Assembly (NCBI RefSeq): GCF_002263515.1
Contig: NZ_CP022752.1
Location: 1,612,001-1,676,000, forward strand
DNA length: 64,000 nucleotides
From: Actinopolyspora erythraea
GTDB lineage: Bacteria > Actinomycetota > Actinomycetes > Mycobacteriales > Pseudonocardiaceae
Reading direction: 5' to 3'
Positions 19,558 to 23,996 of this stretch are shown here, piece by piece. The notes below the pieces were generated by a model. That model saw only the letters and a program-made list of their open reading frames with translations, was not told the DNA's origin and made no database searches. The position numbers and the translations under genes are program-made. How positions within the stretch are numbered: position 1 is the first letter of the stretch; each line of letters starts with the position of its first letter.

Positions 19558-20598
19558 ATGAAGCTGGTCGATATCGGGATCGTCGGACTGGGGGCTTATC
19601 TGCCGGAAACGGTGCGCGGTAACAGCGAAGTGGCTCCCGCGGCGGGAGTCACCGCCGAGTGGATCGAGGAGCGCACCGGCGTGCTCGAGCGACGAACGGC
19701 CGACTCCGGGCAGGCCGCGTCGGACTTGGCGGCGAACGCGTCGATGCGAGCCCTGCGCTCGGCGGGGATCGCACCGGAGCAGGTGGGACTGGTGGTCCTG
19801 GGAACATCCACCTTGGATGAACTCGGCCCCGCCACCGCGTGCCGGGTGCAGCACCAGATCAGTGCCACCAGCGCGGTCGCGTTCGACGTGAACGCCGCCT
19901 GCTCGGGCTTCGTGTTCGGCATGCAGATCGCGCACGACTGGTTGGTGCAACGAGGTCGCGGACGGTACGCGCTGGTGATCGGTGTGGAGCTGTACTCGAA
20001 GTTCCTCGATCCCACTGATCGGGGAACCGCAGTGCTGTTCGCCGACGGCGCGGGAGCGGCAGTGGTGGGGGAGGTGCCTCCCGGAAGGGGAATCCTGCAC
20101 GTGGCCACCGGCTCGGACGGCAGCCAGGCGGACCAGGTGCTCATCCCGGGTGGGGGCAGTCGTGTTCCGGCCAGTGAGGAGTCGCTGGCGAAGGGGGCGC
20201 ACACGATTCACATGAACGGACGCGCGGTGCGGGACTTCATCACCGACGCTTTTCCGCGCGTGTTGGACGAGACCTGTCGTGCGGCCGGAATCGAGAGCAC
20301 CGAGCTGGACATGATCGTGCCGCACCAGCCCAATCCGCTGCTGTTGCGGCATCTGGCCGAACAGGCGGGAATCCCGCCGGAGAAAACGGTGATCACGGGG
20401 GATCGGGTGGGCAACGTCGGCGCCGCTTCCATACCGGTGGCCCTGACCCACGCCGTCGCGGAGGGTCGGGTCGGTGACGGGGAGTACGTGCTGCTCCCGA
20501 CCTTCGGGGCGGGGGTTACCTGGGGAGCCTGCCTGTTGCACTGGTCTCCACCGTTCCAGCTGCCGCGCAGTCCGCTCGACGATTCCTACGGAGTGTGA
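19558..20598 (+). CDS. 3-oxoacyl-ACP synthase III-like (KAS III) condensing enzyme
   Basis: A thiolase-fold enzyme that condenses an acyl-CoA starter with malonyl-ACP or a related acceptor. The full catalytic triad is present: Cys115 in N-A-A-C-S-G-F, His256 in P-H-Q-P-N and Asn287 in G-N-V-G-A-A-S. The length of 346 residues is normal. ATG 19558 gives the usual FabH-like beginning, but the Shine-Dalgarno AAGGAGG ends only 2 bases before it, an unusually tight spacing. It is the first gene of a four-gene cassette with SDR, AfsA-like and acyl-CoA oxidase genes, so a specialised rather than housekeeping role is likely; primary fatty-acid fabH would normally sit beside acpP/fabD/fabF. Confidence 0.88.
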   Translation: MKLVDIGIVGLGAYLPETVRGNSEVAPAAGVTAEWIEERTGVLERRTADSGQAASDLAANASMRALRSAGIAPEQVGLVVLGTSTLDELGPATACRVQHQISATSAVAFDVNAACSGFVFGMQIAHDWLVQRGRGRYALVIGVELYSKFLDPTDRGTAVLFADGAGAAVVGEVPPGRGILHVATGSDGSQADQVLIPGGGSRVPASEESLAKGAHTIHMNGRAVRDFITDAFPRVLDETCRAAGIESTELDMIVPHQPNPLLLRHLAEQAGIPPEKTVITGDRVGNVGAASIPVALTHAVAEGRVGDGEYVLLPTFGAGVTWGACLLHWSPPFQLPRSPLDDSYGV

Positions 20599-20604
20599 CC
20601 AAGA

Positions 20605-21408
20605 ATGTTCGGACAAGCCTTGTTCGATCTCACGGGCAGGCGAGCGCTGATCACCGGAGCTTCCCGGGGAATCGGGGCCCAGATCGCCCGGGGATTCGCC
20701 GCGGCTGGGGCGCGTGTCGCGCTCACCGCCCGCTCGAGGAACACGCTGCAGCGGATCACCGCCGACATCGAGGAGGAGGGGGGTGAGGCGGTGGCGGTTC
20801 CGGGGGACCTGTCCACCGCCGAGGGATGCACCACCGTGGTGGAGGACGCCGTCTCCACCCTGGGCGGGTTGGACGTGCTGCTGCACAACGCCGGTGGTCC
20901 GGTGACGGACGAGCAGGGCGTGGTGCAGCTGCGTCCTGTGCTGGGCACCTCGGACGACGAGTGGGCCGGCGTGTTGGACGTCAACCTGATGGGGGCGGTG
21001 CGGCTGCTGCGGTGCGCGCACCCGTTCCTGGAGGTCTCGCCGGATCCGAGCGTGACGGTCATGTCCTCGGTGGCCGGATTCGTCGGTATGGGCGGAGCGG
21101 AGTCGTACGGGGCCGCCAAAGCCGCCCAGATCTCACTGGTGCGTTCACTGGGCACCGCGTGGGGCCGGAGCGGTATCCGGGTGAACGCGCTGTGCCCCGG
21201 TTGGGTGCGTACCGACATGACCTCGTCGATACACGAGGACGAAGCCACTTCCGAGGCGGTGCTGGCGGAGGTTCCGCAGCGCCGGTGGGCTGCCCCGAGC
21301 GAGGTGGTGGGCCCCGCGGTGTTCCTGGCGTCTCCGGCCGCGTCGTTCATGACGGGCCAAACACTGGTGATCGACGGAGGGCTCGTGGCTCACCCGATTA
21401 TCGGCTGA
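20605..21408 (+). CDS. Short-chain dehydrogenase/reductase (SDR, FabG-like)
   Basis: A 267-residue NAD(P)-dependent oxidoreductase. The cofactor motif T-G-A-S-R-G-I-G is at 17-24, N-A-G at 95-97 and the catalytic Ser154/155-Tyr168-Lys172 triad is complete. It starts 6 bases after the KAS III stop, so it is in the same operon. The pairing suggests reduction of the beta-keto product of the condensing enzyme. The C-terminus I-D-G-G-L is typical of classical SDRs. The exact substrate is not known. Confidence 0.9.
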   Translation: MFGQALFDLTGRRALITGASRGIGAQIARGFAAAGARVALTARSRNTLQRITADIEEEGGEAVAVPGDLSTAEGCTTVVEDAVSTLGGLDVLLHNAGGPVTDEQGVVQLRPVLGTSDDEWAGVLDVNLMGAVRLLRCAHPFLEVSPDPSVTVMSSVAGFVGMGGAESYGAAKAAQISLVRSLGTAWGRSGIRVNALCPGWVRTDMTSSIHEDEATSEAVLAEVPQRRWAAPSEVVGPAVFLASPAASFMTGQTLVIDGGLVAHPIIG

Positions 21409-21440
21409 TCACGTGACACGTCCGACGGGAGGTACGACTG

Positions 21441-22193
21441 ATGGGCGAGAAGCACGCGTGGGTCGTCGGCGACTGTTTCGCCCGGTTCACCGGCAACGAA
21501 GGCGTGATGACGTTGTCCGAGGTGTTGCGGCGGGTACGAGCCACGACCGACCTGGACACCGAGGGGTTGGTGCTGCATCCCGCGCTGGGGACGGACGGCG
21601 CGGCGTGGCGCGAGCTCATGCGGGCCATCGCTCGGGCGGAATTGGAGCAGGTCGTTGTGCCGCAGGGCTCCCCGCCCGAGCCGGTGGGGCGGCACACCGT
21701 GTTGAAGCAGCAGCGGGACAACGTTCTGCTCGGTGAGCCGCACGTCGCGGGGGAGGAGATCAGCGGGGCGCTGGTGGTGCCCAACGACACCGAGATGCTG
21801 CGGGACCACACCGCCGACCAGCAGCACGTCCCCGGCATGTTGCTGGTCGAGGCGGTTACTCAGCTCATCACTTGGGCCGTCGGTGAGACGGTGCCGCCGA
21901 CCCCGGACGGAACACCGCGCTACGCGGTGATGCACCAGCTGCGGACCGAGTTTCACCGGTTCGTGTTCCCGCTGCCCGCCGTGCTGCGCGCCCGGCTCGC
22001 TCGCAGCGGCGAGGCCACCGATGAGCGAGTGCCGTTGCGGGCTCAGGTCGACATCGAGCAAGCCGGCCGGGTGACCACCACGTGCGAGATCGGGTTGAAC
22101 GCCTTCGACCCGAACGCCGTGTTCACCGTCGAAGCCGGACAAGCGGCCAAAACCGTGCGGCGCATGGCATCGGCACCGGAGGTGGCGGCATGA
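21441..22193 (+). CDS. AfsA-like hotdog-fold protein
   Basis: A 250-residue protein whose segment at about 84-200 resembles the AfsA/ScbA (A-factor synthase) hotdog domain: L-K-Q-Q-R-D-N-V-L-L at 88-97, then D-H-T-A-D-Q-Q-H-V-P-G-M-L-L-V-E-A (122-138), followed by an R-x-E-F-x-R-F-V stretch. In Streptomyces, AfsA joins a beta-ketoacyl chain to dihydroxyacetone phosphate in gamma-butyrolactone synthesis. True AfsA has two hotdog repeats and about 300 residues; here the first 80 residues do not clearly form one, so this may be a single-domain dehydratase or condensing relative. It is operonic with KAS III, SDR and acyl-CoA oxidase; its stop overlaps the next start (ATGA). Confidence 0.65.
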   Translation: MGEKHAWVVGDCFARFTGNEGVMTLSEVLRRVRATTDLDTEGLVLHPALGTDGAAWRELMRAIARAELEQVVVPQGSPPEPVGRHTVLKQQRDNVLLGEPHVAGEEISGALVVPNDTEMLRDHTADQQHVPGMLLVEAVTQLITWAVGETVPPTPDGTPRYAVMHQLRTEFHRFVFPLPAVLRARLARSGEATDERVPLRAQVDIEQAGRVTTTCEIGLNAFDPNAVFTVEAGQAAKTVRRMASAPEVAA

Positions 22194-23905
22194 GCGGTGA
22201 CGTGCGGGACGGGAGAAGCGAGTTCGACGCCGACATGCGGGGCGTGTTCAGCGGTGGTCTGTTCGCGCCACGTGAAGATCAGGCACCTTCCGAAAAGCAT
22301 CGGCGCACCTATCAGCAACTGCGTCACATCACCCACAGCCTGAACCTGCCCCGGCGCTCCCGGCAGGACCCTCGGTCGCTGTTCGCCGCCCTGGAGTGGG
22401 CCGCCGTGGTCAGTCCCGCGCTGTTCCTGACCAGCACGGTGCACTACGGGGTGTGCGTGGCCGGTATCGACGGAATGACCCAGGTCGATGCCGACCTGTC
22501 CGTTCTCCGCGGCGAACTGGACGCCGCGAGGACCGTCGGAACCATTCTGATCACCGAGGTCGGACACGGCACCAGTCACGTGGCGCTGCGTACCCGCGCC
22601 GATTACCGCCCCGAAACCGGAGACTTCGTGCTGTCGACCCCCGAGGAGGCGGCGTGCAAGTTCATGGCTCATGCCGGGTTGGAGGGGATTCCCAAGGTGG
22701 GCATGGTCTACGCCCAGCTGTGGGTGGGCGGCGAGTGCCACGGGGTGTTTCCGTTCCTGGTCCGGCTTCGTGACGAGCGCGGCGGGGCCGAGGGTGTCCG
22801 CGTGGGACGCGCGGTGCGCTCCGACGCGGTGGACCTGGACTACACGCTGGTCCGGTTCGACCGGACGGTCGTGCCGTACGAGCAGTGGCTCTCGGACGGG
22901 GCGCACATCGACCACGAGGGGGTGATACACGACCCGGCGGTTTCCCCGGGGCGTCGGCTGGTGCGCTCGCTTCAGGTGTCCCGCAACGCCTCCACCGCCG
23001 GGGCCGTGGGGCTGGCCGCCGTGGCACGTGCCACCAGCGCGTTGATCACCCGTTACGTACATCACCGCACCACATCGGGAGCGCTCGCACCGGGAGCGGC
23101 GCTGGTCAGCCACGCGCGGGTGCGGCATGCTCTCTTCCCCGCGCTGGCCGTCGCCCTGGCCGCCACGGCACAGGTCAACCGCGCGCTGCGCATCACACTC
23201 ACCGGGGATGATCCGCAGCACGCGATGAGCACCGACTGGTCCCCGTGGGCCTCGGTACACTCCGAGCTCGCCCTGTCCAAGGTCTACGCGACCTGGGCCG
23301 CCGAGCGGGTGACCCGAGACTGTCGAAAGCTGCTCGGGGCGCACGGTGTGCTGAACGCCAACCGCATCCATGCCTATGAGGGCCTGGCGGCGGTCTACCA
23401 CTCAGCAGGCGGGGACAACACCCTGACCACCATGGACCTGGCCCGCGCGTTGGCAGACGACCCTCGGGCGGTGCCCGTCTCCTCCGGTTGTGACCGGCTG
23501 GACCAGCCGGAAGCACTTGTCATGCTCGCCCGTGCCCGGGAAAACCTGCTGCGCGCCCGGCTGTGCACCCGTCTGGGTGCCGACCGCTGCCTACCGGAAG
23601 GGGAGCGCTGGAACCGACACGACCAGCTGGCCGACGAGCTGGTGAGCGCACATGCTCATCGGATCGTGCTGGAGCAGTTCCGCGCGTGGGTAGACACGTT
23701 CCCCCGGGGAACAGCGGAACGCGCTGCACCGGCTGTGCCTGCTCCACGGGTTGGACCATGCGCGGCAGCATCGGGACGAGCTGCACCACGCCGGATGGCT
23801 GTCGCGCGAGTGGCATCGGCGAGTGGAGGAGGTTTTCACCGAACAGTGCGATGTGCTCGCCCATTACGGCCCCGAGTTGGTGGACACGCTCGGACTGACT
23901 ACTGA
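22190..23905 (+). CDS. Acyl-CoA oxidase/dehydrogenase-like flavoprotein, C-terminus apparently frameshifted
   Basis: The protein resembles acyl-CoA oxidases: an N-terminal helical domain with H-Y-G-V-C-V-A-G-I, a middle beta domain with I-T-E-V-G-H-G-T-S-H and K-F-M-A-H-A-G-L, and a C-terminal helical domain with L-G-A-H-G-V-L-N-A-N-R-I. Where peroxisomal enzymes carry the catalytic Glu (Y-E-G-E-N-T) this one reads A-G-G-D-N-T. From about 23702 the frame turns into Arg/Ala/Pro-rich sequence unlike the family, while the frame starting at 23703 reads sensibly to 23996. One extra C in the run 23701-23705 would explain it. It starts by ATGA overlap with the AfsA-like gene. Role: probable alpha,beta-desaturation step of the cassette's product. 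Confidence 0.78.
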   Translation: MSGDVRDGRSEFDADMRGVFSGGLFAPREDQAPSEKHRRTYQQLRHITHSLNLPRRSRQDPRSLFAALEWAAVVSPALFLTSTVHYGVCVAGIDGMTQVDADLSVLRGELDAARTVGTILITEVGHGTSHVALRTRADYRPETGDFVLSTPEEAACKFMAHAGLEGIPKVGMVYAQLWVGGECHGVFPFLVRLRDERGGAEGVRVGRAVRSDAVDLDYTLVRFDRTVVPYEQWLSDGAHIDHEGVIHDPAVSPGRRLVRSLQVSRNASTAGAVGLAAVARATSALITRYVHHRTTSGALAPGAALVSHARVRHALFPALAVALAATAQVNRALRITLTGDDPQHAMSTDWSPWASVHSELALSKVYATWAAERVTRDCRKLLGAHGVLNANRIHAYEGLAAVYHSAGGDNTLTTMDLARALADDPRAVPVSSGCDRLDQPEALVMLARARENLLRARLCTRLGADRCLPEGERWNRHDQLADELVSAHAHRIVLEQFRAWVDTFPRGTAERAAPAVPAPRVGPCAAASGRAAPRRMAVARVASASGGGFHRTVRCARPLRPRVGGHARTDY

Positions 23906-23996
23906 CGGCACCGGAGCGCCACTGGCCGCCGAGGACCACGTGGCCACCATGACCGACCTGGCCGGGATCGGCCACCGGAGTCCGTCCCGAGGGTGA
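23701..23996 (+). other. Displaced C-terminal coding segment of the acyl-CoA oxidase gene
   Basis: The frame beginning at 23703 gives P-G-E-Q-R-N-A-L-H-R-L-C-L-L-H-G-L-D-H and continues through a helical, non-repetitive sequence to a stop at 23994-23996. This is the composition expected for the end of an acyl-CoA oxidase. The join lies in a CCCCCGGGG tract. Removing one C restores a single frame of about 601 residues. Confidence 0.65.

What the first reader, a model, noticed from the sequence alone, without database searches (positions are those of the whole stretch)
19558..23996. Four-gene KAS III / SDR / AfsA-like / acyl-CoA oxidase cassette: candidate signalling-lipid pathway
Seen: four tightly packed, overlapping genes encoding a KAS III with an intact Cys-His-Asn triad, a complete SDR, a hotdog protein with an AfsA-like D-H-T-A-D-Q-Q-H-V-P-G-M motif, and an acyl-CoA oxidase-like flavoprotein. 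Known: AfsA-family proteins build gamma-butyrolactones, and an acyl-CoA oxidase (Aco) is needed for avenolide, a butenolide hormone. Inference: the cassette makes a small acyl-derived signal or a short lipid. No ArpA-type receptor is adjacent, and the AfsA-like protein seems to have one hotdog domain, so a known hormone type cannot be assigned.
Basis: partly seen in the sequence, partly recalled or inferred. Interest (0 to 1): 0.78.

Follow-up and report, generated by a model that had tools for sequence, protein, structure and literature searches.

The report
Four-gene fatty-acyl biosynthesis cassette
Four neighbouring bacterial genes encode enzymes that look able to build and modify a small fatty-acid-like chain; they resemble makers of Streptomyces hormones but lack residues those enzymes normally keep, so they more likely serve a different, still unidentified pathway.

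Summary
The four genes are real and conserved: KAS III, SDR, a single-hotdog AfsA-family protein (HD) and an acyl-CoA-oxidase-like flavoprotein (ACO). In the window and 12 loci reached through HD (HD score 200 bits or more), ACO follows HD directly in 13 of 13, KAS III is in the run in 13 of 13 and the SDR in 11 of 13. Some Streptomyces/Kitasatospora versions add a second KAS III, an ACP and a KAS II.

The hormone reading fails at the catalytic parts. HD has one hotdog and lacks the Arg/His of EAx(R/H)Q, present in 27 of 27 readable (of 32) canonical AfsA loci. ACO has Gly where acyl-CoA oxidases carry Glu and lies in a Glu-less clade, apart from HxcO-like and avenolide-like enzymes. No ScbR receptor or HAD-IB phosphatase was found beside it; two true AfsA genes lie elsewhere. 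Single-hotdog AfsA relatives split: Arg-plus, often with a HAD-IB phosphatase (9 of 14), and Arg-less, with ACO (one exception).

Best reading: a compact module, derived from type II fatty-acid synthesis, that makes and oxidises a small acyl-ACP. Chemistry and product are unproven. The window's ACO frame is broken near its C-terminus. New variant of a known kind.

The parts
19558..20598 (+). beta-ketoacyl-ACP synthase III (KAS III), 346 aa, Cys115-His256-Asn286 present
   Evidence: NF006829 325.1 bits over cut-off 249; PF08541 and PF08545 over cut-off; the three residues invariant in 9 of 9 rows
20605..21408 (+). short-chain dehydrogenase/reductase, FabG-like, 267 aa
   Evidence: PF13561 205.5 bits, PF00106 162 bits; natural fusions of an SDR with an ACO-like protein exist, P0045 and P0047
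21441..22193 (+). HD: AfsA-related protein, 250 aa, N-terminal alpha/beta part (about 1-78) plus one hotdog domain; H123, H129 and E137 present, T140 where canonical AfsA has Arg or His
22190..23905 (+). ACO: acyl-CoA-oxidase-like flavoprotein, 571 aa as read; Gly407 at the catalytic-Glu column; residues after about 507 are out of frame relative to relatives
   Evidence: PF22924 45.7 bits over cut-off 27; in the alignment to 1w07, E424 faces G407; tail 511-571 has pLDDT under 50
23703..23978 (+). stretch in another frame that matches the C-terminal 90 residues or so of intact ACO relatives; part of the interrupted gene
   Evidence: separate tblastn match at 72-77% identity; differences mostly at third codon positions
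22190..22193 (+). ATGA overlap of HD stop and ACO start, seen likewise in relatives (ATGA or GTGA)
   Evidence: 11 of 11 junctions printed, window included

Best explanation
The cassette is a compact module derived from type II fatty-acid synthesis for a specialised small acyl chain, not a known hormone pathway. Proposed order: KAS III condenses an acyl-CoA starter with malonyl-ACP to a beta-ketoacyl-ACP (inferred from family and residues). The SDR reduces it to the beta-hydroxyacyl-ACP (inferred). HD acts on that intermediate, most likely as a FabZ-like dehydratase, because it keeps the His and Glu but has lost the AfsA basic residue and the phosphatase partner (inferred). The flavoprotein ACO then carries out a redox step on the carrier-bound acyl chain (2,3-oxidation, oxygenation or reduction) without the Glu of acyl-CoA oxidases (inferred). 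The ACP, and any elongating KAS II, must come from elsewhere in this genome; in several Streptomyces and Kitasatospora relatives both are in the cluster. Shown here: gene content, order, conservation, residue states and clade. Not shown: any reaction or product.
For: In the window and 12 loci reached through HD, ACO follows HD in 13 of 13, KAS III is in the run in 13 of 13, SDR in 11 of 13. Second KAS III, ACP and KAS II follow in L009-L012 and L092. Ten surveyed Streptomyces loci have the ACO and KAS III of this set without HD: 9 of 10 with SDR (not L110), 9 of 10 with a second KAS III, ACP and KAS II (not L131); the two scanned of these, L100 and L107, have an acyltransferase beside ACO. ACO-SDR fusions. 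KAS III, ACP and KAS II with an HxcO-type flavoprotein are proposed to make 2,3-epoxyacyl chains in CDA and cystargamide (PMC9136287, passages). HD hotdog structurally closest to FabZ. No basic residue in EAxxQ in 15 of 15 ACO-linked HD loci; HAD-IB phosphatase in 0 of these 15, in 9 of 14 Arg-plus loci and in 0 of 38 background loci.
Against: By sequence HD scores best to AfsA, not FabZ, and no AfsA relative turned up among solved structures, so the FabZ fold match does not discriminate. Two relatives, A. biskrensis L008 and genome locus L038, carry a further GHF-motif protein downstream, and L013 a separate FabA-like hotdog; either could be the true dehydratase. L129 has HD and ACO but no KAS III or SDR beside them. 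The window cassette has no ACP or elongating synthase. Gly for Glu could also mean loss of redox activity. The window's ACO frame is broken.
Confidence: 0.5

Rival explanations
1. Signalling-lipid pathway: HD makes a butenolide or butyrolactone skeleton, ACO plays the avenolide Aco role, and the receptor is elsewhere in the genome.
For: HD belongs to PF03756. The genome has five ScbR-type matches over cut-off, some of which might serve other signals. AfsA-like domains do build butenolides (PMC7756379 and PMC7756420, passages).
Against: Basic residue of EAx(R/H)Q lost and one hotdog only; ACO lacks Glu and is outside the avenolide-like clade; no receptor or HAD-IB phosphatase match beside the cassette; no P450 among the ten cassette and flanking proteins scanned; two true AfsA genes lie elsewhere, one about 1.5 kb from a receptor.
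Confidence: 0.12
2. HD is an offloading acyltransferase (AfsA-like chemistry on another acceptor, such as glycerol, a sugar or water) that releases the acyl chain, while ACO tailors it.
For: AfsA family membership; two HD-less sister clusters, L100 and L107, carry an acyltransferase gene beside ACO.
Against: Loss of the AfsA basic residue; EAxxQ stretch resembles FabZ in the weak profile match to 7qv0 (E 0.022); no acceptor-supplying gene in the conserved set.
Confidence: 0.17
3. ACO is a flavin oxygenase that epoxidises or oxygenolytically cleaves the acyl thioester, in the manner of TdaE or HxcO; HD only shapes its substrate.
For: ACAD-like TdaE joins dehydrogenation, CoA-ester oxygenolysis and epoxidation (PMC8283759, abstract and passages). 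HxcO-type enzymes sit with KAS III, KAS II and ACP (HxcO-like order). The Glu-less clade recurs beside KAS/ACP genes and large PKS-like ORFs.
Against: HxcO-like enzymes in this survey keep the Glu (4 of 4). TdaE and HxcO themselves were not aligned here. No oxygen chemistry tested.
Confidence: 0.15
4. The pathway is a relic in this strain, as the broken ACO frame suggests.
For: ACO frame interruption; HD-type cassette in 5 of 10 Actinopolyspora genomes searched.
Against: All four genes and the stretch past the break differ from A. righensis mostly at third codon positions (one relative compared), which fits a very recent change or an assembly error.
Confidence: 0.15

Closest known systems
AfsA/ScbA/MmfL phosphorylated-butenolide synthases (PF03756) and PKS-terminal PBS domains (gladiostatin, gladiofungin)
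   Same: PF03756 family; HD aligns to the C-terminal hotdog of this genome's own two AfsA proteins; DH...PGM...EA..Q motif.
   Different: One hotdog plus an alpha/beta N-terminal part instead of two hotdogs; basic residue lost; no phosphatase or receptor found beside it; ACO partner.
CDA HxcO and cystargamide CtmA-D (2,3-epoxyacyl-ACP module)
   Same: KAS III beside an acyl-CoA-oxidase-like flavoprotein of about 600 aa; extended relatives also have ACP and KAS II.
   Different: Loci with that gene order (L102-L104, L106, A. alba L179) keep Glu and have no HD and no SDR in the run; the window's ACO is in the Glu-less clade. HxcO and CtmB themselves were not aligned; 'HxcO-like' rests on gene order, and an ACP was detected in L106 and L179 only.
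Avenolide pathway (aco, cyp17, avaR)
   Same: An acyl-CoA-oxidase homologue.
   Different: Avenolide-like locus L134 has a P450, three ScbR-type genes and Glu; none of these was found at the cassette. S. avermitilis Aco itself was not aligned.
FabZ 3-hydroxyacyl-ACP dehydratase
   Different: Sequence under the PF07977 cut-off; extra N-terminal part.
TdaE, TmcF/EpnF (acyl-CoA-dehydrogenase-like flavoenzymes with oxygenase or decarboxylase chemistry)
   Same: Precedent for such flavoproteins doing more than plain alpha,beta-dehydrogenation.
   Different: Not compared by sequence here; other contexts and substrates.

Membership tests
AfsA/ScbA butenolide synthase | PF03756 over gathering score | tested here: met
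   41.8 bits, cut-off 24
AfsA/ScbA butenolide synthase | ScbA_BarX equivalog score (NF041195, cut-off 200) | tested here: not met
   40.9 bits
AfsA/ScbA butenolide synthase | two hotdog domains | tested here: not met
   model read as one hotdog, pLDDT 93.7; one PF03756 stretch
AfsA/ScbA butenolide synthase | basic residue in EAx(R/H)Q | tested here: not met
   R 25 and H 2 of 27 readable of 32 canonical loci; T in the window, non-basic in 15 of 15 ACO-linked HD loci. That the residue is catalytic is recalled
AfsA/ScbA butenolide synthase | condenses a beta-ketoacyl thioester with DHAP | not testable with these tools
   needs enzyme assay
GBL/butenolide signalling system | ArpA/ScbR-type receptor beside the synthase | tested here: not met
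   only a 20.9-bit match within the window (cut-off 150); over-cut-off receptors elsewhere
Avenolide Aco | catalytic Glu of acyl-CoA oxidase | tested here: not met
   G407 faces E424 of 1w07; avenolide-like L134 has E
Avenolide Aco | adjacent P450 (cyp17 type) | tested here: not met
   no P450 among the ten cassette and flanking proteins scanned; not every window gene was scanned
Avenolide Aco | same clade as the avenolide-like enzyme L134 | tested here: not met
   separate clades, FastTree support 0.899 for the Glu-less side
HxcO/CtmB epoxyacyl module | KAS III, KAS II and ACP in one operon | tested here: not met
   cassette has KAS III only; KAS II and ACP present in extended relatives
HxcO/CtmB epoxyacyl module | Glu at the catalytic column, as in HxcO-like loci | tested here: not met
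   E in 4 of 4 HxcO-like loci, G in window
FabZ dehydratase | PF07977 over gathering score | tested here: not met
   19.0 bits, cut-off 23
FabZ dehydratase | hotdog fold with conserved His and Glu | tested here: met
KAS III (FabH) | family score and Cys-His-Asn triad | tested here: met
   NF006829 325.1 over 249, but fabH model TIGR00747 284.3 under its cut-off 292.1; triad residues invariant in 9 of 9 rows

The most novel reading that the evidence does not exclude
An Arg-less AfsA-type hotdog and a Glu-less acyl-CoA-oxidase-like flavoprotein form a dedicated two-enzyme step on acyl-ACP, in which both scaffolds have lost their textbook residue and together carry out a new reaction (for example oxygenation or oxygenolytic release of a 3-hydroxy- or 3-oxoacyl-ACP), giving an unrecognised class of small oxygenated lipids.
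Probability: 0.25. Interest if true: 0.75.

Novelty: new variant of a known kind. Interest (0 to 1): 0.5.

Why it matters
AfsA-family genes and acyl-CoA oxidase genes are easily read as signs of hormone synthesis in actinomycetes. This case offers a simple residue and neighbour test (Arg/His in EAx(R/H)Q, HAD-IB phosphatase, catalytic Glu) that may separate hormone-type from other members, and it points to a Glu-less flavoprotein clade beside KAS, ACP and PKS-like genes whose reaction is unknown and can be assayed in vitro.

Tried and rejected
Hormone reading: tested through receptors, the Arg/His column, the Glu column and a tree; rejected as main reading. HxcO membership: similar gene company, but Glu state and clade differ; kept only as the nearest functional precedent. 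Tropolone link through the Burkholderia plantarii relative: the annotated plasmid stretch around it (L132) lists no KAS gene, and TdaE was not compared by sequence; dropped. Cell-surface polysaccharide link: glycosyltransferases lie near the window cassette and near that of L015, but none was recognised among the ORF starts read by eye around A. alba, A. righensis and A. mortivallis, which were mostly not scanned; weak. His-to-Glu spacing as evidence for FabZ: FabZ spacing rested on recall, so not used. The N-terminal part of HD (1-78) was barely covered by the structure matches (rows span 79-225) and was not folded alone; its fold is untested. HxcO, CtmB, S. avermitilis Aco and TdaE sequences were not obtained. 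Paper searches: I recognised no description of this cassette in their listings; papers were seen as listings, abstracts or passages, none whole. The role of the AfsA basic residue was looked for in one paper and not found there.
Full report
What is there. The window is 1612001-1676000 of a 5.24 Mb single-contig genome; its nearest named relatives for HD are three Actinopolyspora species at 79-80% identity. Four genes run on the + strand: KAS III 19558-20598, SDR 20605-21408, HD 21441-22193, ACO from 22190. HD and ACO share four bases; all 11 junctions printed, window included, show ATGA or GTGA. KAS III passes NF006829 (325.1 against 249) though not the fabH model TIGR00747 (284.3 against 292.1), and C115, H256, N286 are invariant in 9 of 9 rows. 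The SDR scores 205.5 bits to PF13561 over the whole domain.

The broken frame. ACO as read is 571 aa and stops at 23905. The three named Actinopolyspora relatives have open frames of 596-615 aa. Differences from A. righensis fall mostly on third codon positions in all five segments tested, including the stretch after the break, so the break is recent or an assembly error.

Conservation. The genome-contig scan with HD gave 9 relatives among 61 pattern matches. In all, 28 HD-family loci were looked at without selecting for ACO: the window, L006-L018 and L037-L050. Thirteen score 200 bits or more to the A1 profile (the threshold is mine): the window, L006-L015, L037 and L038. In these, ACO directly follows HD in 13 of 13, KAS III is in the run in 13 of 13 and the SDR in 11 of 13 (not L013, L014). 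In the 15 weaker loci ACO is found in none and a KAS III over 200 bits in four, L016 and L040-L042. Two more HD loci, L092 and L129, came from an ACO search, so their ACO is given by construction; L129 has no KAS III in its 20 kb. Second KAS III, ACP and KAS II follow in L009-L012 and L092; in L015 the second KAS III is a short, internally deleted form; in L013 a KAS II follows. In the genus, HD matches occur in 6 of 10 genomes, 5 of the cassette type and one (G401, L049) of the other type. In 394 genomes drawn from the class, 10 had an HD match at E 1e-15 or better, and only G000 and one of the two G223 loci carry ACO in the stretch fetched.

A second split follows the first. A HAD-IB phosphatase lies within the fetched stretch of 9 of the 14 Arg-plus loci (two of them, L016 and L017, supplied the query), of 0 of 15 ACO-linked loci and of 0 of 38 background Streptomyces loci. 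Phosphatases are proposed to act after butenolide-phosphate synthesis (PMC7756379, passages). So the Arg-plus class fits AfsA chemistry better than the Arg-less class that holds the window.

ACO is not an ordinary acyl-CoA oxidase. Against Arabidopsis 1w07 the residue facing E424 is G407; that E424 is the catalytic base is recalled. Over 66 rows the column reads by context: HD G6 A5 T2 (13; the context of P0044 is assumed), KAS loci without HD G10 (10), large PKS-like neighbours G5 A1 (6), HxcO-like order E4 (4), P450 plus ScbR locus of S. lunaelactis E1 (1), other E21 A2 G9 (32). A FastTree tree puts a Glu-less clade (support 0.899) holding the window, the HD-less KAS clusters and the PKS-linked ones apart from the HxcO-like and avenolide-like rows. 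The survey used 40 regions that I picked from the listed matches; 169 of 392 Streptomyces genomes had a match. Of ten HD-less KAS loci, nine have the SDR (not L110) and nine a second KAS III, ACP and KAS II (not L131). 'HxcO-like' rests on gene order as described for cystargamide and CDA (PMC9136287, passages), not on an alignment to HxcO. A. alba has a Glu-plus ACO-KAS III-ACP-KAS II operon as well as the cassette.

Is it a hormone locus? Five ScbR-type matches over cut-off lie at 2.44, 2.60 (two), 4.81 and 5.18 Mb; the only match in the window is a 20.9-bit one at about window 11.2-11.5 kb. The two true AfsA genes are at 2.42 and 2.60 Mb. Avenolide needs aco and cyp17 and has AvaR receptors (PMC5744401, passages); an avenolide-like locus with a P450 and three ScbR-type genes was seen on a S. 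lunaelactis plasmid. None of these companions was found beside the cassette, though only ten window proteins were scanned for families.

How it probably works. KAS III, SDR and HD make a beta-ketoacyl-, beta-hydroxyacyl- and then, most likely, enoyl-ACP; ACO performs a flavin redox step on it. ACO-SDR fusions (P0045, P0047) support consecutive action. Acyl-CoA-dehydrogenase-like enzymes with other chemistry exist (TdaE, PMC8283759, abstract and passages; TmcF/EpnF, PMC9943649, passages). Against this: HD is nearer AfsA than FabZ by sequence; other hotdog or GHF-motif proteins sit in L008, L038 and L013; the window cassette has no ACP or KAS II; Gly for Glu could mean an inactive enzyme. In HD-less clusters L100 and L107 an acyltransferase stands beside ACO, which leaves an offloading role for HD open.

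Verdict. A conserved, real biosynthetic cassette; hormone reading unlikely; new variant of a known kind; product unknown.

Noticed in passing
L008:12714-13538, L038:10562-11383, partial match at L006:12592-12684: A fifth gene after ACO, about 274 aa with a GHF motif and no Pfam match, shared by A. biskrensis and genome G223 (about 31% identity); only a short partial match is left in A. righensis.
   Followed up: partly
L100:7651-8721, L107:10680-11864: HD-less Streptomyces clusters with Glu-less ACO, KAS III, SDR, second KAS III, ACP and KAS II carry an acyltransferase (PF00698) next to ACO; product unknown.
   Followed up: partly
L016, L017, L040-L042, L044, L046, L047, L049: A second class of single-hotdog AfsA relatives keeps the Arg and has a HAD-IB phosphatase nearby, four with a KAS III (L016, L040-L042): candidate small butenolide pathways.
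   Followed up: partly
P0045, P0047: Natural fusions of a Glu-less ACO-like protein with an SDR.
   Followed up: no
L007:14838-18609; L012:2684-4120; similar ORFs in L006: A cyclic-nucleotide-binding encapsulin shell protein lies near the cassette in A. alba (beside a terpene synthase) and S. xylophagus, and, by ORF likeness only, in A. righensis.
   Followed up: partly
L177 (own genome 3.899-3.919 Mb): A second ACO-family gene in the own genome follows an ACP-like ORF and a ketosynthase-like ORF.
   Followed up: partly
own genome 2.42-2.44 and 2.59-2.60 Mb: Two canonical double-hotdog AfsA genes with ScbR-type receptors in the region: likely the true GBL systems of this strain.
   Followed up: partly
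L015:11527-11961: A short KAS III-like ORF that holds only N- and C-terminal parts, in the S. violaceusniger plasmid cluster.
   Followed up: no
L009:15292-16542; relatives in L010-L012, L015, L092, L099-L101, L105, L107-L111, L131: A conserved regulator-like gene (416 aa in L009, no Pfam match) accompanies these Streptomyces/Kitasatospora clusters but gave no match in the window or the Actinopolyspora loci.
   Followed up: partly
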